Virus record (IMG/VR): IMGVR_UViG_3300046791_000312
Span: 1 to 24,620 of that record
Source: a virus
Strand: one strand, 5' to 3'
Length of the DNA: 24,620 bases
Shown piece after piece: positions 1,290 to 24,425 of this stretch (position 1 is its first letter; each line of letters opens with the position of its first letter). The notes below the pieces were generated by a model. That model was not told where the DNA came from and did no database searches. It saw only the letters and a list, made by a program, of their open reading frames with translations. The position numbers and the translations under genes were made by a program.

Positions 1290-1312
1290 ACCCCATTCCA
1301 GGAGCATCGAAC

Positions 1313-3113: not shown

Positions 3114-3523
3114 GCCACCGCTCCGCCCAGACCAGCCTCGAGGCCTACCACACCCACCGGCCCGAGCCGGCCCGCGCGAGGGTCATCGCCTACCTGGTGC
3201 GCTGCGACAACGGCGCCACGCACGAAGAGATCAGCGCCGGGAGCGGCGTCCGCCACGATACGGTCAAGGCGACGATTCACCACCTGGGACAGGAGGGCGT
3301 CGTCGCCGCGCTCAAGAAGACGCGCCCGACCTCGACCGGGCGCCGGGCGATGGTCTTCGTGCTCGTGTCGGGGACGTCCGAGGGCCTCGATCCGTCCTGG
3401 CCCCCGCCACACCGCGACTCGTGGAAGGAGCGGGCGCTGCGGGCCGAGGCCCTGGCCCTCGAGCTTCGCGCCGAGCTGGACGAGCTCAAGAACATCGAGC
3501 CGCGGAAAGGACTCTTCGAGTGA
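3110..3523 (+). CDS. Winged-helix DNA-binding protein with C-terminal coiled coil, 137 aa
   Basis: Residues about 20-88 look like a winged helix-turn-helix: a first helix (ARARVIAYLV), then THEEISAGSGVRHDTVKATIHHLGQEG as helix, turn and recognition helix, then a basic wing ending in AMVFVLV. Residues about 105-130 are an amphipathic, Glu/Leu/Arg-rich helix (ERALRAEALALELRAELDEL), a likely dimerising coiled coil. Inference: a small transcription regulator or replication accessory protein. The start overlaps the upstream TGA as ATGA, and the end is TGATG with the next start inside it. Confidence 0.65.
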   Translation: MSHRSAQTSLEAYHTHRPEPARARVIAYLVRCDNGATHEEISAGSGVRHDTVKATIHHLGQEGVVAALKKTRPTSTGRRAMVFVLVSGTSEGLDPSWPPPHRDSWKERALRAEALALELRAELDELKNIEPRKGLFE

Positions 3524-4005
3524 TGTACGACACCCCTGTCCTGAGCCACCCCGCCGCGTTCTATACCCCGGCCACCAATCAGGTCTGCGTCGTCGGAACC
3601 TTCCGACCCCTGGTACACGTCGGCCGCGTCGTCGGCGATATCGAGTCCAACTATCAGGCGATGCTCTGGCCCGGCGCCGGCGGCGACCCGCCCGGGCAGG
3701 CCAGCTACCAGGGCGTCGTGCTCGACGCGCAGGACCCCGCCGAGGTCGACTTCTGGCTCATCACCGACACCGGCGACACCATGACGCCGATGCACCGGAT
3801 CCGCGTCTTCTGGGACACGGCGAGCCTTCACATCACCGGGACCCCCGACTTCATCCCAGACGGCTTCATCAACGGCGACGACGCCGACGCGTTCGCGCTG
3901 GCCTGGCAGCTCGGAGACCAGGCCGCCGACTACAACGGCGACGGCTTCGTCAACGCCGACGACCGGGATCGCTTCGAGGACGACTTCGCGGGGGGGCGGC
4001 CATGA
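3523..4005 (+). CDS. Protein with C-terminal dockerin type I-like calcium-binding repeat, 160 aa
   Basis: The first 105 residues are a beta-rich domain of unknown family without a signal peptide. Residues about 109-155 contain two EF-hand-type loops typical of dockerins. The second, DYNGDGFVNADD, has ligands Asp136, Asn138, Asp140, Asn144 and Asp147 at loop positions 1, 3, 5, 9 and 12. The first (DFIPDGFINGDD) has Ile at position 3 and may be weakened. Dockerins normally bind cohesin modules on secreted or surface proteins. GC-rich dockerin-like repeats are abundant in Planctomycetes. On a phage protein the module could attach to a host cohesin-like surface protein, but this is inference. The start lies inside the previous stop (TGATG). 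Confidence 0.7.
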   Translation: MYDTPVLSHPAAFYTPATNQVCVVGTFRPLVHVGRVVGDIESNYQAMLWPGAGGDPPGQASYQGVVLDAQDPAEVDFWLITDTGDTMTPMHRIRVFWDTASLHITGTPDFIPDGFINGDDADAFALAWQLGDQAADYNGDGFVNADDRDRFEDDFAGGRP

Positions 4006-4217
4006 TCGCGCACATCGAACCAGCCGAGGGCGATCACGCGGACTTCAGCGCGGACGCATGGGGCGTCATCGGCAACAGCGCCGACCGCCGGTTCACCTTC
4101 GTACGGAGCGACTTCCCCTTCACGGGCCGCCCCCCGAGCATCTTCATCATCGACTGGAAGTACAACGAAGAGCTGATCTGCGGCATCTACCGCGGGCCCT
4201 TCCTGTCCCCCGTGTGA
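4002..4217 (+). CDS. Hypothetical protein, 71 aa
   Basis: A small, aromatic-rich soluble protein (RFTFVRSDFPF, FIIDWKYNEE, ICGIYRGPF) that starts ATGA-coupled to the dockerin-bearing gene. The pattern of short beta strands suggests a compact beta fold. No family is recognised. It is the last gene of the continuous coupled block and is followed by a 104-base gap holding a promoter candidate. Coupling to the dockerin gene suggests the two may act together. Confidence 0.6.
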   Translation: MIAHIEPAEGDHADFSADAWGVIGNSADRRFTFVRSDFPFTGRPPSIFIIDWKYNEELICGIYRGPFLSPV

Positions 4218-4270
4218 CCTACTCCAAAGGTCCGAATAACACCAATCCGCGCCCTCTCCGGGGGAAATGC

Positions 4271-4300
4271 TTGGGCGAGCCACCATCCGCGCGGTAGGGT
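4271..4300 (+). promoter_or_regulatory. Promoter candidate, -35 TTGGGC / 18 bp / -10 TAGGGT
   Basis: This lies in the only sizeable intergenic gap of the first 5 kb (4218-4321). TTGGGC at 4271-4276 is separated by 18 bp from TAGGGT at 4295-4300. The same 18-bp spacing occurs in the candidates at 8305 and 14519. A start about 7 nt later would give a short leader carrying AGGAG before ATG 4322. It fits sigma70-type geometry but is not tested. Confidence 0.45.
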
Positions 4301-4321
4301 CGAAGGGAAGGAGATCCCACC

Positions 4322-4435
4322 ATGAGCGACCTCGCCTTCGGCTTCCTGATCGGCTTCTGCCCCCTCTTCCCCATCGCCGCCGCCTGGTGGCCGATCGTCG
4401 CCGACGGTCGCGTCACGGTCGGCGCCACCGGCTGA
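4322..4435 (+). CDS. Small membrane protein, 37 aa
   Basis: ATG 4322 follows a strong AGGAG with a 7-8 nt gap. The product is 37 residues, almost entirely one hydrophobic helix (FGFLIGFCPLFPIAAAWWPIV) with a short polar tail. The good ribosome binding site and promoter upstream make a real gene likely despite its size. Small single-span proteins next to one another in phages are often holins, antiholins or other envelope effectors. Nothing here is specific enough to choose. Confidence 0.5.
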   Translation: MSDLAFGFLIGFCPLFPIAAAWWPIVADGRVTVGATG

Positions 4436-4466
4436 GCCCGCCCCCGCACCCCGAGAGAGAGAGCCC

Positions 4467-4718
4467 ATGCAGCCCATGACGATCATCGTCGCGCTCTTTG
4501 CGCTGGCCCTCGTGCTCGCGCTGGTCCTGTTGTTCCTGATGCACCGATGGCAGAGGGAGAACTTCGAGACCGCTCGGATCGTCGGCAAGGCCGCCGGCGA
4601 AGCTCAGGCACTCAGGGCCCTCGCCGCCGAGCGAGAGCGCGCCCGGGAGCTCGGCTATGGAGTTTCTCCTGTGGTTCCTTCCCTTCCTCTGGACCCAACC
4701 GAGGCTCCGACCCGGTAA
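4467..4718 (+). CDS. Membrane-anchored coiled-coil protein, 83 aa (spanin-like layout)
   Basis: Residues about 5-25 (IIVALFALALVLALVLLFL) form one membrane helix. They are followed by a charged helix (residues 27-65, rich in Arg, Glu and Ala) likely to form a coiled coil, and a Pro-rich tail. This is the architecture of an inner-membrane spanin (Rz), and a second small gene (4657-4785) is nested in another frame at its 3' end, as Rz1 is in Rz. However, no lipobox is present in the nested product, so the spanin idea is only a hypothesis. A purine-rich GAGAGAGAG lies before ATG 4467. An in-frame ATG at 4476 is an alternative start. Confidence 0.55.
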   Translation: MQPMTIIVALFALALVLALVLLFLMHRWQRENFETARIVGKAAGEAQALRALAAERERARELGYGVSPVVPSLPLDPTEAPTR

Positions 4719-4785
4719 CGGGGGGCCGATCGACGTCGACCCCTGGGACCCGGACGTGACCGAGAGCCCGCGGGAGATCCGCTAA
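4657..4785 (+). CDS. Nested small hydrophobic protein, 42 aa
   Basis: This frame starts inside the 3' end of the 83-residue coiled-coil gene and extends 67 bases beyond it. ATG 4657 is preceded by CCCGGGAGC (4642-4650), the start-associated block seen before several genes here. The product has a hydrophobic, Trp-rich N-terminus (MEFLLWFLPFLW) and a polar, Pro/Asp-rich rest (GPIDVDPWDPDV). It has no Cys, so it cannot be a classical lipoprotein o-spanin. It ends TAA 23 bases before a strong terminator, consistent with the end of a transcript. Confidence 0.45.
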   Translation: MEFLLWFLPFLWTQPRLRPGNGGPIDVDPWDPDVTESPREIR

Positions 4786-4807
4786 ACCAAGGTCTCTCTC
4801 TCCTCCT

Positions 4808-4842
4808 GCCCCCGGGCGCGTGCGTGCCCGGGGGCCCTTTTC
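4808..4842 (+). terminator. Rho-independent terminator
   Basis: A perfect 10-bp GC stem (GCCCCCGGGC 4808-4817 pairing with GCCCGGGGGC 4826-4835) with an 8-nt loop is followed by CCTTTTCT. It sits just after the small membrane gene cluster and before the SH3-like and terminase genes. It probably ends transcription from the upstream block. Confidence 0.8.
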
Positions 4843-4852
4843 TGCGCGGACC

Positions 4853-5059
4853 ATGATCTACGCCCCCAAGCCCGGCGACCGCGTCCAGCTCCACTACGCC
4901 GCCCGCCGGATGCCCCACCACGGGAGGACGGGCACGGTGCGGGCGTTCAACCCAAAGGCCAGGGGCCCGCGGAACGCGCTCGTCGAGCTCGATGGGATCG
5001 GCCTCCGCGTCGTCGTGCCTCGCGGCAACCTCCGGCGCCCGCTATCCTCTCCCCCATGA
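4853..5059 (+). CDS. Small SH3/KOW-like protein, 68 aa
   Basis: The pattern PGDRVQL, GRTGTVRAF, ALVELDGIGLRVVVP and a basic C-terminus follows the five short strands of KOW or SH3-like barrels, which bind RNA, DNA or partner proteins. ATG 4853 was chosen over a longer GTG at 4820 because the latter would run through the terminator. There is no clear Shine-Dalgarno sequence. The stop overlaps the next start (ATGA at 5056), coupling it to the putative small terminase gene. Confidence 0.55.
   Translation: MIYAPKPGDRVQLHYAARRMPHHGRTGTVRAFNPKARGPRNALVELDGIGLRVVVPRGNLRRPLSSPP
5043..5048 (+). promoter_or_regulatory. -10-like TATCCT upstream of the putative small terminase
   Basis: TATCCT ends 7 nt before ATG 5056. 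It fits the TANNCT consensus found before other genes here and would give a leaderless or nearly leaderless transcript. No -35 box is evident. It is weaker than the other cases because the gene is also translationally coupled to its upstream neighbour. Confidence 0.3.
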
Positions 5060-5661
5060 AGACCACGCGACCAACGCGCGGCCCTCAGCGTCGACGCAAG
5101 AACGCCGGGACCGGCTCGTACAACAAGCCCCTGACCGACCAGCTCGTCGCGACGATCTGGACACTCACCGAGGAGGACCGGAGCCAGCGCGCGATCGGCG
5201 AGCTCCTCGGCGTCGCGCCCTCCCAGGTCTCCAAAGAGCTCGGCCGCGACCCCATCCGCCTCGAAGCGCTGCGAGCGCGCCAACGAGAAGAGCGGGCGAA
5301 GCGCTGGAAACGCCTCGAGACCGTCGGCGTCGACGAGCTCCTCGAGTGGGCGAAGGTTCTCAAGGACGCCCGCCCGGAGTTCACCAGCACACGCAAGCAC
5401 ATCAGCCAGCGCCGCATCGAGCGCCTCGCCGTGCTCCCCCGCATCCTGACCGCCCTCCGCGGCGTCGCGGCCGAGGGCTCCAAGCAGACCCAGCTCCTCA
5501 CCGGCGGCGCCACCGAGCGCGTCGGCCAGGAGCAACCGTCGGAGTTGAGCGCCGAGCAGCTCGTCGCCCAGGCGATCGAGCGCGGGCTCGTCGACCGGCT
5601 CCCGGAGCGTCTCCGGGAGTACGCGAAGACTGTGCAGAGAACCGGGAGCAAGGAAACATGA
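5056..5661 (+). CDS. terS: Putative small terminase subunit
   Basis: This 201-residue protein has a very basic N-terminus, then a helix-turn-helix region (residues about 28-65: TDQLVATIWTL, SQRAIGELLGVAPSQVSKELG). A long helical central region rich in Arg, Glu and Leu follows, with a C-terminal helical region (LSAEQLVAQAIERGLVDRLPER). This matches the usual plan of small terminases: DNA-binding domain, oligomerisation core and large-subunit contact tail. The large terminase lies 860 bp downstream. Small terminases recognise the packaging site and feed DNA to the motor. Sequence alone does not exclude a HTH regulator. ATGA overlap sets the start. Confidence 0.6.
   Translation: MKTTRPTRGPQRRRKNAGTGSYNKPLTDQLVATIWTLTEEDRSQRAIGELLGVAPSQVSKELGRDPIRLEALRARQREERAKRWKRLETVGVDELLEWAKVLKDARPEFTSTRKHISQRRIERLAVLPRILTALRGVAAEGSKQTQLLTGGATERVGQEQPSELSAEQLVAQAIERGLVDRLPERLREYAKTVQRTGSKET
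5639..5650 (+). repeat. Direct repeat copy 1 (GAACCGGGAGCA) flanking atypical gene
   Basis: This 12-bp sequence recurs exactly at 6010-6021, bracketing the 123-residue gene at 5658-6029. It contains the GGGAG ribosome binding site of that gene. The repeat may be a recombination joint. Confidence 0.8.
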
Positions 5662-6029
5662 GCGACATCAGGCCGGCGATGGACCGACTCAATGAGGTGG
5701 TGGAAAATGCCGAGGCGGCTTTCCTCTTCACCGGCGGCCCCGTCTGGGCCGAGATAGAGAGCGACGGCCTGGCCTTTTCGTACGACAGAGCGGGGAAGCA
5801 ATGGGGCCTGTTCATAAGACGGCCTCCGGCGGGGCCAACCCGATGGAGAGAACACTCCGTCGAAAACAAATGCGCGATGGTGGCCGCCTTCCCCGCGCTC
5901 AGGCTCGCGATGATCGAGGCGCATCAAAAAAGAGAAAAACTGGTCGACACCGCCACACTGGCGGCGACTCGGTTCGTCAAAGACCACTCGGCCGCAATGG
6001 ACAGCCACGGAACCGGGAGCAGAGCATGA
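5658..6029 (+). CDS. Hypothetical protein, 123 aa, possible inserted moron
   Basis: The start overlaps the previous stop (ATGA) and follows the ACCGGGAGC block and AAGGA. The protein has an alpha+beta pattern (AAFLFTGGPVWAEIES, LAFSYDRAGKQWGLFIRRPP, then helices) of no recognised family. Base use differs from its neighbours. It contains four AGA arginine codons, several AAA codons and AT-richer third positions (around 5690-5995), while flanking genes use almost only G- or C-ending codons. With the flanking direct repeats, this suggests recent acquisition. A role in packaging is not implied by its position between the terminase genes. Confidence 0.6.
   Translation: MSDIRPAMDRLNEVVENAEAAFLFTGGPVWAEIESDGLAFSYDRAGKQWGLFIRRPPAGPTRWREHSVENKCAMVAAFPALRLAMIEAHQKREKLVDTATLAATRFVKDHSAAMDSHGTGSRA
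6010..6021 (+). repeat. Direct repeat copy 2 (GAACCGGGAGCA)
   Basis: Exact copy of 5639-5650. It supplies the ribosome binding site of the following gene (ATG 6026). It also overlaps the last codons of the atypical 123-residue gene, reading as the tail GTGSRA. Confidence 0.8.
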
Positions 6030-6526
6030 ACGTCCACGACATCATCAGCGAGGCCCTCGCCCTGGGCGTCTTCGGGGTCGGCCTGTGGTTCATGGGGTAC
6101 TGGCGCGGGCGCACGGTCGGGACCAGGACCGAGCGGGAGCGGTGGGAGGCCGCCGCGAAGCGGTGGAGCGACGAGAGCATCGCCGAACTGCACTCCAAGC
6201 TCAGCCCTCTCCAGGTCATGCGCGCCGAGCAGGAAAGAACCGCCGAGCCTGGCCCCATCTCGCGGTACACGATCGGCGTCGACTTCGCCGCCGGCACGCG
6301 CGAGGTGACGCGCATCGTCGAGCCCACGCCGGACCGCGACCGCTTCGGCGTGCCCAAGAACATGGTCCCCTGCGGGACCAAGGGCTGCGGCGCCGAGGCC
6401 ATGTTCGATGTTCACTGGCCGGCCCAGCGCCTCAACCTCTGCCTCGCCTGCACCGAGCGGGCGAAGATCGTCGCGAGTCACATGGGCTTTGAGCTATCCT
6501 GCACGGTGCTCCCGGCGGCGACGTGA
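6026..6526 (+). CDS. Membrane-anchored protein with C-terminal zinc-cluster-like Cys motif, 166 aa
   Basis: Residues about 8-25 (SEALALGVFGVGLWFMGYW) are a membrane helix. A basic/acidic helix and a central strand-rich domain follow. The C-terminal part carries CX4C (Cys116, Cys121) and CX2C (Cys139, Cys142), spaced as in a treble-clef or zinc-ribbon site. The family is not recognised. It sits between the two terminase genes, with ATGA coupling on the left and GTGA overlap with the large terminase on the right, so it is co-translated with the packaging genes. A role at the membrane during packaging or early infection is speculation. Confidence 0.6.
   Translation: MNVHDIISEALALGVFGVGLWFMGYWRGRTVGTRTERERWEAAAKRWSDESIAELHSKLSPLQVMRAEQERTAEPGPISRYTIGVDFAAGTREVTRIVEPTPDRDRFGVPKNMVPCGTKGCGAEAMFDVHWPAQRLNLCLACTERAKIVASHMGFELSCTVLPAAT
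6495..6500 (+). promoter_or_regulatory. -10-like TATCCT before the large terminase
   Basis: TATCCT lies 22 nt before GTG 6523, inside the end of the upstream gene. It fits the TANNCT pattern of the window, and a start at about 6507 would leave a short leader. No -35 box or good Shine-Dalgarno sequence is visible, so support is weak. Confidence 0.25.
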
Positions 6527-8331
6527 CCGCCCCCCGCTTCACCGCCGACGAGCTCAAAGAGGCCGCCAGCCTCATCGGCTTCGACCAGGCCCTCGAGGCC
6601 TGGAAGGTCCGCCGGCCCTCGGACTGGTACGAACCAAGCCGCCCCGGCCAGCGCTCCGTCGACGGCCGGCTCCTGGGATGGACCGCCAACCAACTCGCGT
6701 TCCACAAGGCCCCGCACCCCGTGCGCGCGCTCTTCCCGGGCAACGGATGGGGCAAAACTACAGCCCTCGGCGCCGAGGTCAACGCCTGGGGCATCCACTC
6801 AAACCAATGGCAGGAGACGCCGGCGACGCCGGTCCTCATGCTCTGGTTCACCAAGCTCTACGACCAGTTCGAGATGATCCTGACCCAGCTCCGTGCCGAC
6901 GTCTTCGGCTCGGACGTGCGGTACAGCGAGGGTGACGGGTTCACCTGGCCCGACGGCTCGCGCATGCTCGTCGGCTCGGCCGACCGCCCGCGGGACTGGC
7001 ACAAATGGCAGGGCGTTCCGGTCGACCTGGTTGTCTTCGACGAGGAGCCCCCGCTCTCCCTCTGGCGCGAGATGATGCAGCGCCGCCGCGTGCGCAAGAC
7101 GCGGTTCATCCTGGGCGCCACCGCGACCGAGTCGGGCTCGTGGATGGAGTCGGACATCTACGCGCCCTGGCTCCAGCACCACCAGGCCCAGGGGCTCGAC
7201 CTCGAGGGCTCGGCTAGAGCGCAGAACCATCCCGAATACTTCGTCTGGCCCCGGGGCGGCCTGCACGACAACCGCGCCGCCGACGCCGCGGACATCCTCT
7301 GGTACGAATCGCGGACCTGGTCCAGCGCCAAGGAGCGGGAGGTTCGCCTCTTCGGCGGGTTCCAGAACTGGGTAGGCGACCCCGTCTTCGGGGACGCCGG
7401 GCTCGAGAAGCTCCGCGCCCGGTGCCGCGTGCTCACGCGCGAGAGCCCGCCCCCGGTCTCGGGCATGTTCGAGCTGGATCCCAAGGTCGAGCCCCGGCAG
7501 AGCGCCCCGCCCGACCCCGCCCGGGCCTCGCTCTTCGGCCGGCCCGTGACCGAGCTCACGCCCCTGGAGATGCGCGGCGGCCGGTTCATCCTGGGGCCCG
7601 CGGACACAAAAGGCCTGGTGCGGATCTACGTCCCGCCGTCGATCGGGCAGACCGCCGTCATCGGGGCCGACTTCGCCTACGGGCTCGAGGGCCGCGACCT
7701 GGACACGGCGATCGTCCTCGACAAGAGCGTCACGCCGGCCCGGTACCTGGCGACCGCGGCCGGGCGCTGGGGCGAGACCTTCGACCGCGTGCTCTACGCC
7801 CTGGCGGTGTTCTACGGGGGCGCGTTCATCCTCGGCGAGCGGCAGGTCGGCCTCCCATCGCTCCGCCGGCTCCTCGCGGAGTTCCAGTACACGTATCTCT
7901 ACTACGGCCGCCAGGAGCAGGACCGCCGGCGCCCTGTCACTGACAAGCTCGGGCACCCTCGCACGTATGACGACGTCACGCTCCGGAACCTGCGGCGGGC
8001 CGTCATCGACGAGACCCTTGAGGTCCGCGACGACTCGGTCATCGACCAGATGGGCCGGCTCAAGTACCACAACCCGACCGAGATCACCCAGGGGCAGCGC
8101 CTCGAGGACTTCCGGCTCAAGATCAAGCTCTCGGGCGGCGGGAGCCCCGACCTGGTCATGGCGCTGTGCTACGCCTGGCACGCGTTGAGCGAGGTTCATC
8201 ACTTCGAGAAGCCCGAGCCTCTCTTCCCGCCGGGGTCGATGGGCGAGGCCCTGGGGTATGAAAAGCTGTTCACGGAGGAGGCCCGGCCGATCGTGGGCAT
8301 CCCCTTGGCACGCCGGCCGCGGCGGCGGTAG
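6523..8331 (+). CDS. terL: Terminase large subunit (packaging ATPase/nuclease)
   Basis: The large terminase is the motor that cuts concatemeric DNA and pumps it through the portal. The 602-residue protein has an N-terminal ATPase with Walker A GNGWGKT (73-79), Walker B LVVFDEE (169-175) and coupling motif LGATAT (197-202). The C-terminal RNase H-like nuclease supplies acidic residues in GADFAYG (Asp383), GERQVGL (Glu439) and SPDLVMALCYAW (Asp543). The length is normal, although residues about 300-350 form a Pro-rich linker. GTG 6523 overlaps the previous TGA and has no strong ribosome binding site, so coupling is likely. It ends with TAG, which is also the start of a TAGACT promoter-like hexamer. 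Confidence 0.93.
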   Translation: MTAPRFTADELKEAASLIGFDQALEAWKVRRPSDWYEPSRPGQRSVDGRLLGWTANQLAFHKAPHPVRALFPGNGWGKTTALGAEVNAWGIHSNQWQETPATPVLMLWFTKLYDQFEMILTQLRADVFGSDVRYSEGDGFTWPDGSRMLVGSADRPRDWHKWQGVPVDLVVFDEEPPLSLWREMMQRRRVRKTRFILGATATESGSWMESDIYAPWLQHHQAQGLDLEGSARAQNHPEYFVWPRGGLHDNRAADAADILWYESRTWSSAKEREVRLFGGFQNWVGDPVFGDAGLEKLRARCRVLTRESPPPVSGMFELDPKVEPRQSAPPDPARASLFGRPVTELTPLEMRGGRFILGPADTKGLVRIYVPPSIGQTAVIGADFAYGLEGRDLDTAIVLDKSVTPARYLATAAGRWGETFDRVLYALAVFYGGAFILGERQVGLPSLRRLLAEFQYTYLYYGRQEQDRRRPVTDKLGHPRTYDDVTLRNLRRAVIDETLEVRDDSVIDQMGRLKYHNPTEITQGQRLEDFRLKIKLSGGGSPDLVMALCYAWHALSEVHHFEKPEPLFPPGSMGEALGYEKLFTEEARPIVGIPLARRPRRR

Positions 8332-8334
8332 ACT
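8305..8334 (+). promoter_or_regulatory. Promoter candidate TTGGCA / 18 bp / TAGACT
   Basis: TTGGCA at 8305-8310 is separated by 18 bp from TAGACT at 8329-8334. The first three bases of the -10 are the stop codon of the large terminase. A transcript would start about 18 nt before ATG 8360 and include the GGGAG site. It is the best promoter-like sequence in the window. Confidence 0.55.
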
Positions 8335-8340
8335 TCGCCT

Positions 8341-8354
8341 CAACACCGGGAGCC
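8341..8354 (+). repeat. Start-associated repeat CAACACCGGGAGCC, copy 1
   Basis: This 14-bp sequence is identical at 12475-12488 and 13534-13547. Each copy lies 5-8 nt upstream of an ATG and contains the GGGAG ribosome binding site. The shorter core ACCGGGAGC also precedes ATG 5658 and 6026. Confidence 0.8.
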
Positions 8355-8359
8355 CACAT

Positions 8360-9043
8360 ATGCCGACGTTCCGACGTAAGCCAGGCGACACCATCGAGGC
8401 CGATCTCTACTCCGGCCAGCAGGACAACATCAAAGCGATCTGCGAGGCCTCGGGGGGGCTCGCCTACGTCGACGGCACGGGCCGCCTCGCGTGCAAGACC
8501 CTGCAGGGCATCGTCTACGCCAACGTCGGCGACTGGATCATCAAGGGCAACGGCGAGGTCTACCCCTGCGGCCCCTCTCACATGGCCGAGAAGTACCAAC
8601 GAACCTTCGGACTGACGACCGGAGACCTCGCGGCCCCGTTCGAGGCCACCGGCCGCACCACCGAGGCCGTCGACATCAACTTCCCGAGCCTCGACGCCGT
8701 GCTCGAGTGCCCGGACAACTGCATCGCGATCCGGCAGCTCAAGATTTCCGAGCGGACCGAGAGCGGGCTCTACCTCGAGAAGACCGAGGACATCAACCGC
8801 GACAGCAAGATCGGCGTCGTCATCGCCGCCGGACCCGGGAAGCTCCTGGACGACGGGACGCGGGTCCCCATGCGCTGCAAGGTCGGCGACGTCGTCATCC
8901 TGGCGAAGATGATGTACGTCTATCCCTGGGGCGTCGCGGGCCCCAAGGTCCTGATGAGCGAGGATCACGCGGTGCTTGGGTTCGTGCGGCGGGCGGAGAA
9001 GCCTGAGGATTGCAAGCCCGTTCCCGAGGGCGGTCTCGACTAG
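8360..9043 (+). CDS. Fusion of phage PGDYG-like domain with GroES-like co-chaperonin domain
   Basis: Residues about 1-78 match a common small phage domain: a KxLQGIVYANVGDWIIKGNGE core ending in VYPCGPSHMAEKY. Residues about 120-210 align well with GroES/Hsp10: CIAIRQLKISERTESGLYLE, then IGVVIAAGPGKLLDDG, KVGDVVILAK, and VLMSEDHAVLGFV. GroES caps the GroEL folding chamber through a mobile loop; the matching loop here is about residues 132-150. Phage co-chaperonins such as T4 gp31 serve capsid folding. ATG 8360 follows ACCGGGAGC. Position after the large terminase and before portal fits a role in head protein folding, with host GroEL as the inferred partner. Confidence 0.8.
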   Translation: MPTFRRKPGDTIEADLYSGQQDNIKAICEASGGLAYVDGTGRLACKTLQGIVYANVGDWIIKGNGEVYPCGPSHMAEKYQRTFGLTTGDLAAPFEATGRTTEAVDINFPSLDAVLECPDNCIAIRQLKISERTESGLYLEKTEDINRDSKIGVVIAAGPGKLLDDGTRVPMRCKVGDVVILAKMMYVYPWGVAGPKVLMSEDHAVLGFVRRAEKPEDCKPVPEGGLD

Positions 9044-9046
9044 ACT
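9041..9046 (+). promoter_or_regulatory. -10-like TAGACT overlapping stop codon
   Basis: TAGACT begins with the TAG stop of the GroES-fusion gene and lies 28 nt before ATG 9075. The leader would contain GAGGAGCCCC. No clear -35 at 17-18 bp is visible. Confidence 0.4.
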
Positions 9047-9074
9047 TCCCGCACCCCCTCGAGGAGCCCCACGC

Positions 9075-9272
9075 ATGGCCGGCAACTTCATCAAGAAGGC
9101 GATCAAGCGCCCCGGCGCGTTCCGAGCCAAGGCCAGGGCCGCCGGCGCCGTGAAGGGCTCGGCCCCGATTCCCCGCTCCTACGTCGAGGCCGCCGAGAAG
9201 TCCACCAACCCGACCACCCGCCGGCAGGCCAACCTGGCCGAGACCCTGGGCAAGCTCCGCCCCCGGCGATGA
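9075..9272 (+). CDS. Small basic protein, 65 aa
   Basis: ATG 9075 follows GAGGAG with a suitable gap. The product is strongly basic (IKKAIKRPGAFRAKARAAG and a C-terminal RPRR) with a helical tail. It could bind nucleic acid or the capsid interior. No family is recognised. It lies in a run of very small genes between the co-chaperonin fusion and portal. Confidence 0.6.
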   Translation: MAGNFIKKAIKRPGAFRAKARAAGAVKGSAPIPRSYVEAAEKSTNPTTRRQANLAETLGKLRPRR

Positions 9273-9275
9273 GCC

Positions 9276-9365
9276 ATGCGCCGGCCCTCGGCCCTGTGCG
9301 TCGTCGTGCTGGTGTGCGTCGTCCTGATCGTTGTCGGGATCGTGGGTATGCTGTGCATCGGTTGA
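9276..9365 (+). CDS. Possible 29-aa single-span membrane peptide
   Basis: ATG 9276 opens a 29-residue frame of which residues about 6-28 (ALCVVVLVCVVLIVVGIVGML) form one uninterrupted hydrophobic helix after a basic start (MRRP). Such an inside-positive single span is unlikely by chance, but no good ribosome binding site is seen. A longer overlapping frame beginning ATG 9269 and joining the downstream 79-residue gene is the alternative reading. Confidence 0.4.
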   Translation: MRRPSALCVVVLVCVVLIVVGIVGMLCIG

Positions 9366-9400
9366 ACCCCTGCCCCATCATCCCCGAGGAGCCCCCACCC

Positions 9401-9640
9401 ATGAGCACCTGGACCCCGACCGACTCGAGCGACGTCCTTTCCTTCGACCAGGTCGCCGCCTCCGTCGGCGTGTACGGCTCGGGCGATCCGACGCCCAAGC
9501 TCGTGACCCGCGTCGCCGGGACCACGTTCACGCTTGACAGCAGCCTGAACGACCAGGCCGTCGCCGGCGCCGACCAGTTCCCCACCGATCAGAAGTGGCG
9601 CCGCCTCTCGGGCGTCCTCCAGACCAGCCTCACGTCCTGA
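9401..9640 (+). CDS. Hypothetical protein, 79 aa
   Basis: ATG 9401 has GAGGAG 9-10 nt upstream and gives a product with Thr, Ser, Asp and short beta segments (TPKLVTRVAGTTFTLDS). The in-frame ATG at 9269 would add a Cys/Arg/Pro-rich N-terminus of low quality, so the shorter start is preferred. No family is recognised. A small structural role is possible from its position. A terminator follows. Confidence 0.6.
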   Translation: MSTWTPTDSSDVLSFDQVAASVGVYGSGDPTPKLVTRVAGTTFTLDSSLNDQAVAGADQFPTDQKWRRLSGVLQTSLTS

Positions 9641-9665
9641 ACCGCTCTCTCCGTTCTCGTGCATG

Positions 9666-9703
9666 CGCCGCCCCGTGCCCTCCGTGCGGGGCGGCGTTGT
9701 CTT
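9666..9703 (+). terminator. Rho-independent terminator before the portal operon
   Basis: A 10-bp stem (9666-9675 with 9687-9696, CGCCGCCCCG pairing with CGGGGCGGCG) and an 11-nt loop are followed by TTGTCTTT. It separates the packaging genes from the head genes. Confidence 0.7.
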
Positions 9704-9710
9704 TGGCGCG

Positions 9711-9716
9711 TACGCT
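9711..9716 (+). promoter_or_regulatory. -10-like TACGCT, 6 nt before ATG 9723
   Basis: TACGCT ends exactly 6 nt before the ATG, the same spacing as at 9849, 11676 and 14543. It sits directly after a terminator, where a new promoter would be expected. A leaderless transcript is inferred. Confidence 0.4.
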
Positions 9717-9722
9717 CGGTCC

Positions 9723-9851
9723 ATGGCGCACAAGTCCAAACGCGCGAGGCTCCTCCGCCAGCTCCGGGCGATGCGCGCCGAGGAGCGCCGCCTGCACCGG
9801 GCGATCGAGCTCGTCCGCCGCGGATCCGCGCGCCGCCGCCGCACGCGGTAG
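9723..9851 (+). CDS. Small Arg-rich helical protein, 42 aa
   Basis: The 42-residue product is mostly one basic amphipathic helix (RARLLRQLRAMRAEERRLHRA) ending in an Arg cluster. A coiled coil or nucleic-acid contact is plausible. There is no ribosome binding site; the gene has a TACGCT hexamer 6 nt before its ATG, suggesting leaderless expression. An in-frame ATG at 9663 would start inside the terminator and is rejected. Its TAG stop forms part of the next TAGACT. Confidence 0.5.
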   Translation: MAHKSKRARLLRQLRAMRAEERRLHRAIELVRRGSARRRRTR

Positions 9852-9854
9852 ACT
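9849..9854 (+). promoter_or_regulatory. -10-like TAGACT, 6 nt before portal ATG
   Basis: TAGACT combines the TAG stop of the 42-residue gene with a -10-like hexamer. The intervening TGCCGC leaves no room for a ribosome binding site, so the portal mRNA may begin at its own ATG. Confidence 0.45.
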
Positions 9855-9860
9855 TGCCGC

Positions 9861-11678
9861 ATGGCCCTTGACACCAGCGCCGACAACCTCCGCCGCGAGT
9901 TCGACTCCGCGATCAAGCTCCGCGAGGAGATCACGGACCTCTCGGCCGAGTTCGTCAAACGCCTGGCCGGCCCCGACTACCGCACCGGCTGGGAGGCCGT
10001 CGAGGACCAGCAGGAGAACTACCCGCACGAGCTCGTCCACAACACGGTCCCGGCGCTCTTCTACTCCAACCCCGGCATCGGCTTTGATTCCAGCCTCCTG
10101 CCCCCCGACCACCCCTTCATCCGCGCCGAGCGGATCGGCCTGAACGAGTGGGCGAAAGAGAACCGCCGGCTCGAGCGGCAGATGACGCTCATCGCCTACG
10201 ACGTCTGCGTCGACTTCGGGGTCGCGATGGTGACGCTCGAGAAGATGCCCGGCTACGACACCGCGGGGGAGTACGGCTACGGCACGCCCCCCGTCCCGCT
10301 CTGGCCGGCCGTCCGCCGCGTGTCCCCGGCCCGCTTCTTCACGGACCCCCAGGCCAGCGACGACGAGCTCTTCCGCTTCCGCGGCCACATCTGGATCCGC
10401 GACAAGGCCGACCTCCTGGCCGCCAAGAACGCCGACGGATCCCCGAAGTTCGACCGCAAGATCGTCGAGGGCATGAGCGCCGACGCCGACGTCAAGCGGG
10501 CCCACCGCGAGATCGTCGGCCAGGTCGGCAAGGAGTTCGTCACCCGCAACCAGATCGTCGGCTTCGAGGCCTACGTGCCCGAGACCGGCCAGATTTACAC
10601 GCTCGCGCTCGCGATGTCCGGCGGCGGGGACGGTCAACACGAGTTCATCCGCGCGCCCCGCCCCTACTTCGGCCCCCGGTGCGGGCCCTACGTGATGTTC
10701 GGCGTGCACATCGTTCCCGACCAGGTCTACCCCGTCTCGCCCCTGGCCCTCTCGATGGGCCTGATCCGCGAGCTCAACGCGCACGCCGGCCAGGCCTCGA
10801 GCGACGCCGGGAGCGCCAAGCGGCTCGTCATCGTCGACAGCACGAACAAGCAGCTCGTCGAGACCGTGACCAACGCCCTCTCCTCGAGCGTGGTCGGCGT
10901 GCCCGGCTTCGACGGGAAGGCCATGAACATGGACATCGGCGGCGCCAGCCCCGAGACCATCAACCACATCCAGCGCCTGCGCGAGACCCTGGACCGCCAG
11001 AGCGGGCTCACCGAGACCAAGCGCGGCAACCTGACGGGCGTCACGGCCCGCGAGGTCGCCGAGGCCTCCGCCGGCGAGGACACGCGTACCAAGTTCCTGC
11101 AGGCCCGCTTCCGGGCGAGCGTGGTCGACGCCCTCTCGATCGTCGCGGAGCACATTTGGGAATCGAGCGCCGTCACCTTCGACGTCGCCTACGACGACCC
11201 GACCACCGGGGAGCGGGTCTACGAAATCTTCCGCGGGGGCGACCCAGGCATCCCGGGGATGCCGCACATCCCGTACAACCGGATCCGCGGGAGCGTGTCG
11301 ATCGACCCCTACTCGATGGAGATGGTCGATCAGGGGGTGCTGCAGCGGCGCCTGCAGGCCGCCGTCACGATCACGACCTCGACCCTCTCGGCGGCGCGGA
11401 TGTTCCCCGAGCTCAAGGTCCGCGAGGTCCTGAACGACGCGTACCAGGCCCTCAACATCACCGAGGGCGCGACGCGGTACGTGGACATGGGGATCCTCGC
11501 CGTCGAGCGCGAGCGTGCCCGGCTGATGATGGGGATGCAGCCCGGCGGCGGCGCCCCTGGGCAACCGCCCGAGGGCCCCGAGTCGCTGATGGCCGGCGGG
11601 CCGAGCCCCGGGATGCAGCCGCCCGGGATGAAGGGCCCGGGCGCGATGCCGGCGGCCGAGCCCGTGCTGGCGGCGTAG
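9861..11678 (+). CDS. Portal protein (putative)
   Basis: The portal is the dodecameric ring at one capsid vertex through which DNA passes. The 605-residue size, the place between large terminase and scaffold/capsid genes, and the sequence style all fit. An N-terminal helical part and a segment HNTVPALFYSNPGIGFD ('vPal...nPki') are followed by a beta-rich clip/wing region. Residues about 370-410 (RLRETLDRQSGLTETKRGNL and ARE) resemble the helical stem region of portals. The C-terminus is a Met/Gly/Pro-rich low-complexity tail (about 555-605). No ribosome binding site precedes ATG 9861, which lies 6 nt after TAGACT. Confidence 0.75.
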   Translation: MALDTSADNLRREFDSAIKLREEITDLSAEFVKRLAGPDYRTGWEAVEDQQENYPHELVHNTVPALFYSNPGIGFDSSLLPPDHPFIRAERIGLNEWAKENRRLERQMTLIAYDVCVDFGVAMVTLEKMPGYDTAGEYGYGTPPVPLWPAVRRVSPARFFTDPQASDDELFRFRGHIWIRDKADLLAAKNADGSPKFDRKIVEGMSADADVKRAHREIVGQVGKEFVTRNQIVGFEAYVPETGQIYTLALAMSGGGDGQHEFIRAPRPYFGPRCGPYVMFGVHIVPDQVYPVSPLALSMGLIRELNAHAGQASSDAGSAKRLVIVDSTNKQLVETVTNALSSSVVGVPGFDGKAMNMDIGGASPETINHIQRLRETLDRQSGLTETKRGNLTGVTAREVAEASAGEDTRTKFLQARFRASVVDALSIVAEHIWESSAVTFDVAYDDPTTGERVYEIFRGGDPGIPGMPHIPYNRIRGSVSIDPYSMEMVDQGVLQRRLQAAVTITTSTLSAARMFPELKVREVLNDAYQALNITEGATRYVDMGILAVERERARLMMGMQPGGGAPGQPPEGPESLMAGGPSPGMQPPGMKGPGAMPAAEPVLAA

Positions 11679-11681
11679 GCT
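11676..11681 (+). promoter_or_regulatory. -10-like TAGGCT, 6 nt before methyltransferase ATG
   Basis: The hexamer starts with the portal TAG stop and ends exactly 6 nt before ATG 11688 (spacer TGGTTC). A leaderless start is inferred. Confidence 0.4.
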
Positions 11682-11687
11682 TGGTTC

Positions 11688-12467
11688 ATGCCCGACGCCT
11701 TCCGAGTACTCCTCGGTGACTTCCTCGACGTCTCCCGCGAGATGGAGCACGGCGCGAGCCTGGTCCTGGCCGATCCGCCCTATTCGTCGGGCGGGATGTT
11801 CCGCGGCGACCGGATGATCGACACCGCCAGCAAGTACCAGCAGAGCGACGTCGTCACGCGGCACGCCGGCTTCCCCGGCGACAACCGCGACCAGCGTTCT
11901 TGGCTCCTGTGGTCGGCGCTCTGGCTCGGCGAGTGCCTCAAGCTCTCCGCGCCCGGGGCGCTCCTCTGCGTCTTCACCGACTGGCGGCAGCTCCCCCAGA
12001 CCACCGACGCCGTCCAATGCGGCGGATGGGTCTACCGCGGCATCGTGCCCTGGAACAAGGTGGTCGCCCGCCCGACCGCCGACCGCTTCCGGGCCCAGTG
12101 CGAGTACATCGTCTGGGGCACCAACGGCGCCCGCGACCAGGAGCCCGGCCCCGGCTCGGTCTACCTGCCCGGGTTCTTTGAGGTCCGCACCGTGCCGACC
12201 GCCGACCGCGAGCACGCCACCGAGAAGCCTCTCGAGCTCCTCCGGCAGATCGTCAGGCTGTGCCCCGAGGGCGGCCTGGTGCTCGATCCATTCTGCGGGA
12301 GCGGGTCGACCGGCGAGGCTGCGGTCTCGATGGGACGGCGGTTCGTCGGGTCGGAGATCGACGAGCATTGGGCCGGCGTCGCCCGAAAGAACATCGGCGA
12401 CGCGGCCTCGCACTTCTGGACCGACCCCGAGCCCCAGGAGACCCAGCGGGAGATGTTCAGCGCCTAG
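11688..12467 (+). CDS. Beta-class DNA methyltransferase (DPPY type)
   Basis: The enzyme transfers a methyl group from SAM to the exocyclic amino group of adenine or cytosine. Motif IV DPPY (residues 29-32, followed by SSGG) precedes motif I DPFCGSGSTGEA (from Asp200), the motif order of the beta class. The region between, about 40-180, would hold target recognition. The 259-residue length is normal for phage methyltransferases. The C-terminus ends TQREMFSA, where Q-R-E-M-F fits a loose sliding-clamp-binding pattern. No restriction enzyme is nearby, so it more likely protects phage DNA or alters its packaging or expression. It is leaderless-type, 6 nt after TAGGCT. Confidence 0.88.
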   Translation: MPDAFRVLLGDFLDVSREMEHGASLVLADPPYSSGGMFRGDRMIDTASKYQQSDVVTRHAGFPGDNRDQRSWLLWSALWLGECLKLSAPGALLCVFTDWRQLPQTTDAVQCGGWVYRGIVPWNKVVARPTADRFRAQCEYIVWGTNGARDQEPGPGSVYLPGFFEVRTVPTADREHATEKPLELLRQIVRLCPEGGLVLDPFCGSGSTGEAAVSMGRRFVGSEIDEHWAGVARKNIGDAASHFWTDPEPQETQREMFSA

Positions 12468-12470
12468 CCT
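12465..12470 (+). promoter_or_regulatory. -10-like TAGCCT overlapping stop codon
   Basis: The hexamer begins with the stop of the first methyltransferase, 26 nt before ATG 12497. The following repeat carries the ribosome binding site. Confidence 0.35.
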
Positions 12471-12474
12471 TCCC

Positions 12475-12488
12475 CAACACCGGGAGCC
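12475..12488 (+). repeat. Start-associated repeat CAACACCGGGAGCC, copy 2
   Basis: Identical to 8341-8354 and 13534-13547. It lies 8 nt before ATG 12497. Confidence 0.8.
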
Positions 12489-12496
12489 TCGACAAC

Positions 12497-13525
12497 ATGA
12501 ACGATGCAACGTGCCGCATCATCGTCGGCGACGCGCGGACAGTGCTCGCGCAACTCCCCGCCGGCTGCGCTCGGTGCTGCGTGACCAGCCCGCCCTACTG
12601 GGGCCTGCGCGACTACGGGATCGACGGGCAGATCGGCCTCGAAGCAACGCCCGAGGCATGGGTCGCGGACCTGGTTCGGGTGTTCGCGGAGGTTCGGCGC
12701 GTGCTCGCCGACGACGGGACGCTGTGGGTCAACTGCGGGGATGCGTACTCGGCGAGCGGGCGCGGCGGCAATCCAGGCGGACCGACGAGCACGCTCGAGG
12801 GGTCGCAGGACTCACAAGAGGCGTCGATGGTGAAACAGCGCGCGACCGCGATCGACGGTCTCAAGCCCAAGGACCTGATCGGCCTCCCCTGGCTCCTCGC
12901 CTTTGCGCTCCGCGCCGACGGCTGGTATCTGCGCTCGGACATCATCTGGCACAAGCCAAACCCCATGCCCGAGAGCGTGACGGACCGGCCGACCAAATCG
13001 CACGAGTACGTGTTCCTGCTGTCGAAGTCGCCGCGGTACTACTTCGATGCGGGGGCGATCGCGGAGCCGATCCGCAGCGACCCGGGCAGTTGGAAAATGC
13101 CGGATGGGTTCGCCACGCACGAAGGCGCGCATGGGTCCTTTCACCGCGACGGCCGGGAGAAGGGCCGCAAGCGCATGCTCCCTATCGGAGGCGTGAAGGC
13201 GGTCGGCGTCAACGGCAACGCCACGTACAGCGGCAACACGCCCGAGTTCGGCGACACCCGCAACGCCCGCACCGTCTGGACCATCCCGACCCAGGGCTAC
13301 AGCGGCGCGCACTTCGCCACCTTCCCGCGCGAGCTGGCGGCACGCTGCATCAAGGCCGGGAGCGCCGCCGGCGACCTGGTGCTCGACCCGTTCCTGGGCA
13401 CCGGCACGACCATCGGCGAGGCCCTGATGCTGGGGCGGCGCGGCGTGGGCGTCGAGCTGAACCCCGAATACGCACGCCTGGCCGAGAAGCGGATCGCGGA
13501 AACGTGCCCGCTGTTCTCCCGCTAG
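12497..13525 (+). CDS. Beta-class DNA methyltransferase (SPPY type)
   Basis: This second SAM-dependent methyltransferase has motif IV SPPY (residues 31-34, in TSPPYWGLRDYG) and motif I DPFLGTGTT (from Asp297), again in beta-class order. Further family features are IGLEATPEAWVADLVRVF, LWVNCGDAY and SDIIWHKPNPMPESV. Family knowledge associates SPPY with N4-cytosine methylation more often than N6-adenine, but this is not a rule. It has a long central insertion (about 95-115 and 200-260) typical of phage orphan enzymes. It is a distinct protein from its neighbour rather than a recent duplicate, as the two differ in length and central sequence. Confidence 0.9.
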   Translation: MNDATCRIIVGDARTVLAQLPAGCARCCVTSPPYWGLRDYGIDGQIGLEATPEAWVADLVRVFAEVRRVLADDGTLWVNCGDAYSASGRGGNPGGPTSTLEGSQDSQEASMVKQRATAIDGLKPKDLIGLPWLLAFALRADGWYLRSDIIWHKPNPMPESVTDRPTKSHEYVFLLSKSPRYYFDAGAIAEPIRSDPGSWKMPDGFATHEGAHGSFHRDGREKGRKRMLPIGGVKAVGVNGNATYSGNTPEFGDTRNARTVWTIPTQGYSGAHFATFPRELAARCIKAGSAAGDLVLDPFLGTGTTIGEALMLGRRGVGVELNPEYARLAEKRIAETCPLFSR

Positions 13526-13528
13526 ACT
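13523..13528 (+). promoter_or_regulatory. -10-like TAGACT overlapping stop codon
   Basis: The hexamer begins with the stop of the second methyltransferase and is 25 nt before ATG 13554, the same distance as at 8329-8360. Confidence 0.4.
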
Positions 13529-13533
13529 CACCC

Positions 13534-13547
13534 CAACACCGGGAGCC
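13534..13547 (+). repeat. Start-associated repeat CAACACCGGGAGCC, copy 3
   Basis: Identical to copies at 8341 and 12475. It lies 6 nt before ATG 13554 and contains its GGGAG ribosome binding site. Confidence 0.8.
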
Positions 13548-13553
13548 CCACGC

Positions 13554-14312
13554 ATGAAGTTCGCCCCCCTCGATCCCTCCATCGGCGCCGAGGTCCTCTT
13601 CTACGACCCCCAGCGCCGCGAGCCGATGACCCTCCGCCGCGCCCAGCTCGCCGGCAAGTCGACGACGTCGACCGGCTGGCACCTCCTGGTGTTCAACGAC
13701 CCCGAGATCGACGTCAAGAGCGACCGCCGGGACCCGACGGAGATCGCCTACGACGTCGAGCTGATCGCGAGCGCCGAGAAGGTCCCGAGCCCGATCGCGC
13801 GGTGCTGCTGGCCGGATGATCGGCCGGAGCCGACGCGGGGCGTGCCGCCGAAGACTCTCGCCGACCTGCCGATCGGTTCGCACACGATCAAGACGGACAT
13901 CGAGCTCAACATACCCGTGCGCGTCATCGAGGATCGGCGGACTCCCGTCACCGAGGCCGACCTGGCGGCCCCCGCCTCCGCCGACATCCGCGCCATGTTC
14001 AGCGCCGGCCGCCTCGAGCCCTTCATGCCGCCCCCCGACGGCCGTCCGCACGTCCTTGAGGCCCCCGGCGGCCGGTGCCTGGTCGCCGCCGCCAAGGAGT
14101 CGACCGAGATCGAGGGCACGCGCTTTGCCGCGCTCGACCAGGACGGCGAGGCCGGCGCCCTGCGGTGGACGACGACCGTCGACGGGGCCCACGTCTTCAA
14201 GGACCGCGCTCAGGCCCGCAAGGCGGCCGGCATGATGCCCGCGGCGTTCATCGGGCCGATCACCGTGCCGAGCCGCGGGAAGGGCGGGAACCAGCGCCGT
14301 GCCACGCGCTAG
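13554..14312 (+). CDS. Hypothetical protein, 252 aa
   Basis: A soluble alpha+beta protein with no recognised family. Visible elements are an N-terminal beta segment (EVLFYDPQRREPMTLRRAQL), a Trp-containing strand (TGWHLLVFNDPE), a central Pro-rich linker and a C-terminal helix with a basic tail. The start is fixed by the start-associated repeat and its GGGAG. Its position between methyltransferases and scaffold fits a minor head or accessory protein, but no motif supports that. It ends TAG within TAGCCT, though no gene starts at the expected distance. Confidence 0.6.
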   Translation: MKFAPLDPSIGAEVLFYDPQRREPMTLRRAQLAGKSTTSTGWHLLVFNDPEIDVKSDRRDPTEIAYDVELIASAEKVPSPIARCCWPDDRPEPTRGVPPKTLADLPIGSHTIKTDIELNIPVRVIEDRRTPVTEADLAAPASADIRAMFSAGRLEPFMPPPDGRPHVLEAPGGRCLVAAAKESTEIEGTRFAALDQDGEAGALRWTTTVDGAHVFKDRAQARKAAGMMPAAFIGPITVPSRGKGGNQRRATR

Positions 14313-14517
14313 CCTCGAGGACTTCGAGTGTTGGCTCCGGGCCACCAGCGGACCCCGGGGCATCGTGGGCACTCCCGAGTGGCTCGCCAAGCAGGAGGAG
14401 GACCGCAAGGACCTTGCCGCCTTCCGCGAGAGCCGGGACAGGGCCCGGGCCGCGAGGCACGCGCCCGGGGGAGCGCGGAACGGTGCGACACGCGACCCCT
14501 CCCCCGGGCGCTCCTGA
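14299..14517 (+). CDS. Hypothetical protein, 72 aa
   Basis: GTG 14299 starts 14 bases inside the preceding gene. The product has a helical N-terminal half (LEDFECWLRATSG, WLAKQEEDRKDLAAF) and an Arg/Gly/Pro-rich tail. The tail is encoded by a large inverted repeat, so its sequence may be set by DNA or RNA structure. No ribosome binding site is clear. The gene is plausible because the frame is open across the gap, but small. Confidence 0.4.
   Translation: MPRASLEDFECWLRATSGPRGIVGTPEWLAKQEEDRKDLAAFRESRDRARAARHAPGGARNGATRDPSPGRS
14461..14511 (+). repeat. 13-bp perfect inverted repeat, possible terminator-like stem
   Basis: GCGCCCGGGGGAG (14461-14473) pairs perfectly with CTCCCCCGGGCGC (14499-14511). 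The 25-nt loop contains an inner CGCG/CGCG pairing. No T-tract follows, so ordinary Rho-independent termination is uncertain. It lies at the end of a gene and just before the promoter of the scaffold-like gene. Confidence 0.6.
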
Positions 14518-14518
14518 C

Positions 14519-14548
14519 TTGCGTCCGGTAACTCGTTCGGCCTAGACT
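14519..14548 (+). promoter_or_regulatory. Promoter candidate TTGCGT / 18 bp / TAGACT before scaffold gene
   Basis: TTGCGT at 14519-14524 and TAGACT at 14543-14548 are 18 bp apart, and the -10 ends 6 nt before ATG 14555. This promoter would give a leaderless scaffold mRNA. Unlike most others, the TAG here is not a stop codon of the preceding gene, which supports selection for the hexamer itself. Confidence 0.5.
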
Positions 14549-24419: not shown

Positions 24420-24425
24420 TACACT
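24420..24425 (+). promoter_or_regulatory. -10-like TACACT before last gene
   Basis: TACACT is 17 nt before ATG 24443 and matches the TANNCT consensus. The leader would contain CCCGGGAGC. No -35 box is visible. Confidence 0.35.

What the first reader, a model, noticed from the sequence alone, without database searches (positions are those of the whole stretch)
8329..14548. TAG stop codons built into a TANNCT -10-like hexamer
Six junctions (8329, 9041, 9849, 11676, 12465, 13523) have the TAG stop of one gene continuing as TAGACT, TAGGCT or TAGCCT. The same hexamer type also occurs without a stop codon at 14543 (TAGACT), 9711 (TACGCT), 5043 and 6495 (TATCCT) and 24420 (TACACT). Three of the eight genes in 8.3-14.6 kb would need only a T at position 6 by chance, yet positions 5-6 are CT in all of them. 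At 8305, 14519 and 4271 a TTGNNN box lies exactly 18 bp upstream. This suggests each head gene has its own compact promoter sharing a codon with its neighbour.
Basis: partly seen in the sequence, partly recalled or inferred. Interest (0 to 1): 0.62.

Follow-up and report, generated by a model that had tools for sequence, protein, structure and literature searches.

The report
Stop codons doubling as phage promoter halves
In a stretch of a bacterial virus genome (its host is probably a planctomycete), the TAG that ends one gene is also the first half of the "start transcribing here" signal for the next gene, a space-saving version of a known kind of promoter that often makes messages with no leader.

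Summary
Of 8 TAG stops in the window, 7 continue as TAGNCT. This compares with 2 of 25 other stops (Fisher 6e-5) and 1 of 13 non-stop TAGs, and that one is itself an intergenic promoter-like site. The hexamer is best read as a TANNNT (here TANNCT) -10 element. Five sites lie exactly 6-7 nt from ATG, so +1 would be the A of ATG (leaderless). Six others lie 21-28 nt away, before a Shine-Dalgarno leader (CCAACACCGGGAGCC in three). TTG lies exactly 18 bp upstream at three sites and at no other spacing. TANNNT is the most avoided of 64 comparable motifs inside genes. Six Phycisphaerales (Planctomycetota) genome samples show the same signal: TANNNT peaks sharply 6 nt before starts (106 of 1,769 genes, about 8 per position elsewhere), with C at position 5 in 53%. 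The phage also carries a domain common in that order. Placing the -10 on the stop codon is not a host rule and was not seen in the sampled relatives. It looks like a compaction device of this lineage, used in the terminase-to-scaffold block. The major capsid and tail genes have no such promoter. New variant of a known kind; no RNA data were available.

The parts
8329..8334 (+). -10 hexamer TAGACT; TAG = stop of large terminase gene 6523-8331; leadered start at 8360
8305..8310 (+). -35 box TTGGCA, spacer 18, inside the terminase reading frame; its TTG is one of only 6 TTG among 609 Leu codons
9041..9046 (+). -10 hexamer TAGACT; TAG = stop of Cpn10-domain gene 8360-9043; leadered start at 9075
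9849..9854 (+). -10 hexamer TAGACT; TAG = stop of small gene 9723-9851; 6 nt to ATG 9861 of portal-position gene (leaderless)
11676..11681 (+). -10 hexamer TAGGCT; TAG = stop of portal-position gene; 6 nt to ATG 11688 of DNA methylase gene (leaderless)
12465..12470 (+). -10 hexamer TAGCCT; TAG = stop of first methylase; leadered start at 12497 (second methylase)
13523..13528 (+). -10 hexamer TAGACT; TAG = stop of second methylase; leadered start at 13554
14310..14315 (+). TAGCCT; TAG = stop of gene 13554-14312, inside the overlapping gene 14299-14517; promoter role doubtful (no start at a usual distance)
14543..14548 (+). -10 hexamer TAGACT in an intergenic region (not a gene stop); 6 nt to ATG 14555 of scaffold-position gene (leaderless)
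14519..14524 (+). -35 box TTGCGT, spacer 18, partner of 14543
9711..9716 (+). -10 hexamer TACGCT without stop codon; 6 nt to ATG 9723 (leaderless); directly follows an intrinsic-terminator-like hairpin
5043..5048 (+). -10 hexamer TATCCT inside the 3' end of gene 4853-5059; 7 nt to ATG 5056 (HTH_38 gene, terminase-small-subunit position)
4295..4300 (+). -10 hexamer TAGGGT, leadered start with GGAG at 4322
4271..4276 (+). -35 box TTGGGC, spacer 18, partner of 4295
24420..24425 (+). -10 hexamer TACACT, leadered start with GGGAG at 24443
6495..6500 (+). TATCCT 22 nt before GTG 6523 of the terminase gene; possible -10
8340..8354 (+). leader copy TCAACACCGGGAGCC (Shine-Dalgarno GGGAG)
12474..12488 (+). 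leader copy CCAACACCGGGAGCC
13533..13547 (+). leader copy CCAACACCGGGAGCC
9665..9697 (+). intrinsic-terminator-like hairpin, 14 pairs, followed by TGTCTTT; just upstream of -10 9711
4808..4835 (+). intrinsic-terminator-like hairpin, 12 pairs, followed by CCTTTTC

Best explanation
The hexamers are -10 elements (TANNNT, here mostly TANNCT) of promoters read by the host's housekeeping RNA polymerase. The host is most likely a Phycisphaerales-type planctomycete. Between 8.3 and 14.6 kb the phage gives most genes their own promoter. There is almost no spacer, so the -10 is laid over the TAG stop of the upstream gene: TA of the stop supplies positions 1-2 and the first bases of the spacer supply the final CT. 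Anything further upstream, including the -35 box at 8305, lies inside the upstream coding sequence. With the hexamer 6-7 nt before ATG (5043, 9711, 9849, 11676, 14543), transcription should start at or next to the A of ATG and give leaderless mRNA. With it 21-28 nt away (4295, 8329, 9041, 12465, 13523, 24420), it should give a short leader with a GGGAG/GGAG ribosome-binding site. Shown here: motif, positions, statistics, host signal. Inferred: use by RNA polymerase, start sites, leaderless translation, host.
For: Seven of 8 TAG stops read TAGNCT, against 2 of 25 other stops and 1 of 13 non-stop TAGs. Hexamer gaps to starts cluster at 6-7 and 21-28 nt. TTG lies at exactly 18 bp for three sites and at no other spacing from 14 to 22, with TTG at 0.0027 per base; the box at 8305 uses a TTG leucine codon that is 1% of leucine codons. 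TANNNT inside genes, both strands, is 11-12 against 38-42 expected under synonymous shuffling, the most depleted of 64 XYNNNZ classes; avoidance of intragenic TANNNT is documented for Mycobacterium tuberculosis (PMC10653884). In six Phycisphaerales samples TANNNT has a peak of 106 of 1,769 genes at gap 6, with position 5 C 56, A 38, G 8, T 4, close to the phage form. Hexamers of the same class at the same spacing that are not gene stops (5043, 9711, 14543) indicate that the promoter, not termination, is the conserved function. A strong terminator-like hairpin lies just before the promoter at 9711. Host: a domain of gene 3523-4005 is found in 20 of 61 Phycisphaerales genomes, up to 24 places per genome, against 0 of 58 relatives of G009, and a terminase relative lies in a Phycisphaeraceae assembly.
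Against: No RNA data. Eight of eleven sites lack a recognisable -35 box. The closest relative (L034, terminase 44%, portal 37%, capsid 36% identical) has no TANNNT at these junctions, so the sites are not conserved across the family. The total of TANNCT on the + strand is not above shuffles. TANNNT avoidance is also seen in the G009 assembly and is not specific to this host. Host assignment is indirect.
Confidence: 0.82

Rival explanations
1. Translation-termination context: TAGNCT is a favoured stop context and has nothing to do with transcription.
For: Seven of 8 TAG stops share it.
Against: The same hexamer class with the same distance to ATG occurs without being a gene stop at 5043, 9711 and 14543, and at 4295 and 24420 with leaders. 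TGA and TAA stops do not show NCT (2 of 25), and in six probable host samples TAG is rarely followed by N[AC]T (21 of 370). Position to the next start is fixed, which termination does not need.
Confidence: 0.05
2. Binding site or spacer repeat of a phage regulator or cassette: the junctions are copies of one mobile or duplicated spacer (TAGACT...CCAACACCGGGAGCC) rather than independent promoters.
For: Three spacers share 14-15 of 15 bases of the leader.
Against: The leaderless junctions share only the hexamer and its spacing, not flanking sequence. The stop is part of a different upstream gene each time. Probable hosts use the same gap-6 signal.
Confidence: 0.07
3. Chance plus composition: at 70% GC, TA is rare outside stops, so any T-ended hexamer found near stops will look stop-embedded.
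For: The overall number of TANNCT is what shuffles give.
Against: Placement is not: TANNCT 5-40 nt before starts is 10 against 1.1 expected, maximum 6 in 2,000 shuffles. TTG at exactly 18 bp occurs for three sites. TANNNT is depleted elsewhere in genes.
Confidence: 0.04

Closest known systems
Leaderless genes with TANNNT -10 signal about 12 bp before the start (PMC3160421; Deinococcus, PMC12340547; M. tuberculosis, PMC3898074)
   Same: Same hexamer class, same 6-7 nt gap to the start codon, same high-GC setting.
   Different: Here in a phage of a probable planctomycete; C preferred at position 5; [quoted passage not shown] only about half of the sites are leaderless.
Stop codon overlapping the next gene's Shine-Dalgarno (PMC2784483)
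   Same: Stop codon choice adapts because the stop doubles as a signal for the next gene.
   Different: There the shared signal is for translation (SD); here it is a transcription promoter, and the stop chosen is TAG.
Phage morons and multi-promoter late regions (general knowledge)
   Same: Genes with no match in the relative L034 (Cpn10-domain gene, two methylases) sit between conserved head genes and carry their own promoters; one further small gene has a terminator-like hairpin before its promoter.
   Different: Conserved genes (portal, scaffold position) also carry the promoters, so this is not only cargo.
Thermus phage P23-45
   Same: Considered as a phage comparator for leaderless transcription (the primary paper is not held; its leaderless mRNAs rest on general knowledge).
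   Different: No gap-6 clustering of TANNNT on its late strand, only 3 cases on the early strand, and stop-embedded hexamers show no such pattern.

Membership tests
TANNNT (sigma-70/SigA-type) -10 promoters | Hexamer TANNNT at fixed distance from the start codon or start site | tested here: met
   Gaps 6-7 and 21-28 nt
TANNNT (sigma-70/SigA-type) -10 promoters | -35 TTG at 16-19 bp spacing | tested here: inconclusive
   Exactly 18 bp at 3 sites, absent at the others; the gap-6 sites of the host samples also show no clear TTG enrichment
TANNNT (sigma-70/SigA-type) -10 promoters | Avoidance inside coding sequence | tested here: met
   11 against 37.8 expected, rank 1 of 64
TANNNT (sigma-70/SigA-type) -10 promoters | Mapped 5' end about 7 nt downstream of the last T | not testable with these tools
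   No transcriptome for this phage or host
Leaderless genes | TA-like signal about 12 bp before the start codon and no SD between | tested here: met
   Five sites, no room for a leader
Leaderless genes | mRNA beginning at the start codon | not testable with these tools
   Needs 5'-end mapping
Phycisphaerales promoter type (as defined here from six samples) | TANN[A/C]T with 6-nt gap to the start | tested here: met
   106 of 1,769 host genes at gap 6, position 5 C or A in 94 of 106; the phage sites fit; the G009 sample shows no such peak
General host habit of stop-embedded -10 | TAG at close junctions followed by N[AC]T more often than elsewhere | tested here: not met
   4 of 56 against 17 of 314, p = 0.54

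The most novel reading that the evidence does not exclude
In this phage lineage stop-codon identity is selected by the kind of junction that follows: TGA where the next start overlaps (ATGA), TAG where a promoter follows, TGA or TAA where only a ribosome-binding site follows. Stop codons would then be a transcription-initiation resource in a genome where TANNNT is otherwise purged, and nearly every gene of the head block would be separately transcribed, about half of them as leaderless mRNA.
Probability: 0.35. Interest if true: 0.6.

Novelty: new variant of a known kind. Interest (0 to 1): 0.42.

Why it matters
If true, stop codon usage in compact GC-rich phages is partly set by transcription, not only by termination or Shine-Dalgarno overlap. 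It also gives a practical marker: a TAG stop followed by NCT at a short junction predicts a promoter and often a leaderless mRNA. As a by-product, the work finds a strong leaderless-type promoter signal (TANN[C/A]T, 6 nt before the start) in Phycisphaerales; no planctomycete start-site map was found in the library searched, so this is directly testable by mapping RNA 5' ends in any cultured member.

Tried and rejected
Relatives by single-protein scans of viral contigs (major capsid, terminase, portal) and genome contigs (capsid) found nothing. An exact leader-plus-hexamer pattern in viral contigs gave no match. A terminase Walker-motif pattern and alignments found remote relatives, none with a stop-embedded hexamer at a promoter-like distance: one TAGACT in L022 at 10158 is only 1 nt from the called ATG. 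For several low-GC relatives my gene caller returned no genes, so they are uninformative. The methylase protein was too widespread to tell the host. The idea that stop-embedding is a host-wide habit was tested and rejected. P23-45 as a phage with the same device: rejected. Simple count enrichment of the hexamer is not significant, so the argument rests on placement. Literature searches for a promoter overlapping a stop codon with leaderless mRNA, and for planctomycete leaderless promoters or start-site maps, found no prior description; the library is open-access only.

Full report
WHAT THE WINDOW IS. A 24,620-bp, 70% GC virus record from IMG/VR with no close kin in the collections. All genes called lie on the + strand. 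By family matches it holds RusA, an HTH_38 gene in the small-terminase position, large terminase, a Cpn10-domain protein, a head-tail connector (portal position) and two N6/N4 DNA methylases. Scaffold and major capsid positions are inferred from gene order and from relatives found later.

THE OBSERVATION. TAGNCT occurs eight times, all on the + strand between 8.3 and 14.6 kb. The eighth, 14543, is intergenic. My gene list has 33 genes: TGA 21, TAG 8, TAA 4. NCT follows TAG in 7 of 8, other stops in 2 of 25 (p = 6e-5), and non-stop TAGs in 1 of 13 (p = 5e-4). A codon-order shuffle never gave more than 5 stop-embedded TAGNCT in 2,000 trials. TANNCT 5-40 nt upstream of starts was 10 observed against 1.1 expected, maximum 6. 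The plain count of TANNCT on the + strand is not remarkable (13 against 10-11), so the case rests on placement. On the minus strand there is none, where a codon-order shuffle gives about 10 and never 0 in 2,000 trials.

ANATOMY. Aligned on the hexamer, the sites fall into two groups. In five (5043, 9711, 9849, 11676, 14543) the hexamer ends 6-7 nt before ATG. For a sigma-70-type promoter the start site is about 7 nt after the last T of the -10 (general knowledge), i.e. the A of ATG: leaderless. In the others (4295, 8329, 9041, 12465, 13523, 24420) it lies 21-28 nt before ATG and is followed by a short leader with GGGAG or GGAG; three of these share CCAACACCGGGAGCC. TTG lies exactly 18 bp upstream at 4271, 8305 and 14519, and at no other spacing from 14 to 22 bp. 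The box at 8305 is inside the terminase frame and uses a TTG leucine codon, 6 of 609 leucine codons. A 14-pair terminator-like hairpin at 9665-9697 sits just before the promoter at 9711.

EVIDENCE THAT IT IS READ AS A PROMOTER. If TANNNT starts transcription it should be avoided inside genes. Under synonymous-codon shuffling it is 11-12 observed against 38-42 expected on both strands, the most depleted of all 64 XYNNNZ classes. The same avoidance is seen in relatives and in the sampled bacterial assemblies, so it is generic and not a host marker; it is described for M. tuberculosis (PMC10653884).

HOST AND HOST DIALECT. A terminase relative lies in a Phycisphaeraceae assembly. The C-terminal domain of gene 3523-4005 matches places in 20 of 61 Phycisphaerales genomes, up to 24 in one genome, and none of 58 relatives of the assembly G009, whose record is titled Pseudomonadales. 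I took samples of six Phycisphaerales genomes, 1,769 genes by my own simple caller. TANNNT peaks at exactly 6 nt before starts: 106 genes, against roughly 8 per position further upstream; position 5 is C in 56, A in 38, G in 8, T in 4. This matches the phage hexamers. The G009 sample shows no such peak.

IS STOP-EMBEDDING GENERAL? No. In the host samples TAG at close same-strand junctions is followed by N[AC]T in 4 of 56, elsewhere 17 of 314 (p = 0.54). Single clear cases exist (TAGAAT-6-ATG at 9-nt junctions in G466 and G432). The closest relative L034 keeps terminase, portal, scaffold and capsid order but has no TANNNT at these junctions. G002 and G006 have stand-alone gap-6 hexamers, e.g. 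TAGGAT before their terminase gene. So per-gene promoters laid over stop codons appear to be a feature of this lineage. Upstream, where genes overlap as ATGA, no hexamers occur except 5043 and 6495; downstream, from the capsid gene on, starts lack a hexamer until 24420.

MECHANISM. RNA polymerase of the host recognises a minimal -10 with little or no -35. In a 70% GC genome purged of intragenic TANNNT, the TAG stop supplies the TA step at no cost, so a promoter can be built with a spacer of only 9 nt (leaderless) or about 28-31 nt (leader with SD). Steps shown: sequence, spacing, statistics, host signal. Steps inferred: polymerase use, start sites, leaderless translation, host identity.

COMPARISON. 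It works like the TANNNT leaderless promoters of Deinococcus and actinobacteria (PMC3160421, PMC12340547, PMC3898074) and, in economy, like stop codons overlapping Shine-Dalgarno sites (PMC2784483). I found no description of a -10 built on the upstream stop codon, nor of a planctomycete leaderless promoter map, in the library searched; PMC5397173 noted a possible leaderless or S1 bias for the single planctomycete it examined.

LIMITS.

Noticed in passing
window 3523-4005: Protein ends in a calcium-loop/dockerin-like stretch (DYNGDGFVNADDRDRF) whose relatives occur many times per genome in some Phycisphaerales; a probable host-derived domain in a phage protein.
   Followed up: partly
window 8360-9043: Protein with a C-terminal Cpn10 (GroES) domain behind another N-terminal domain, placed between terminase and portal.
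   Followed up: no
window 948-6526: Most genes here overlap as ATGA/GTGA with TGA stops (948, 1774, 2478, 3110, 4002, 5056, 5658, 6026, 6523), suggesting translational coupling, in contrast to the TAG block.
   Followed up: partly
L034:6744-8611: The large terminase of the closest relative is split into two overlapping frames (6744-7757 and 7754-8611): frameshift, sequencing error or real split gene.
   Followed up: no
L061-L138 and L142-L181 (six Phycisphaerales genome samples): Sharp TANN[C/A]T peak exactly 6 nt before start codons: leaderless-type promoters appear common in this order, and no description was found in the searched library.
   Followed up: yes
window 14460-14517: Inverted repeat GCGCCCGGGGGAG...CTCCCCCGGGCGC at the end of the small gene before promoter 14519-14548; possible terminator or attenuator.
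   Followed up: no
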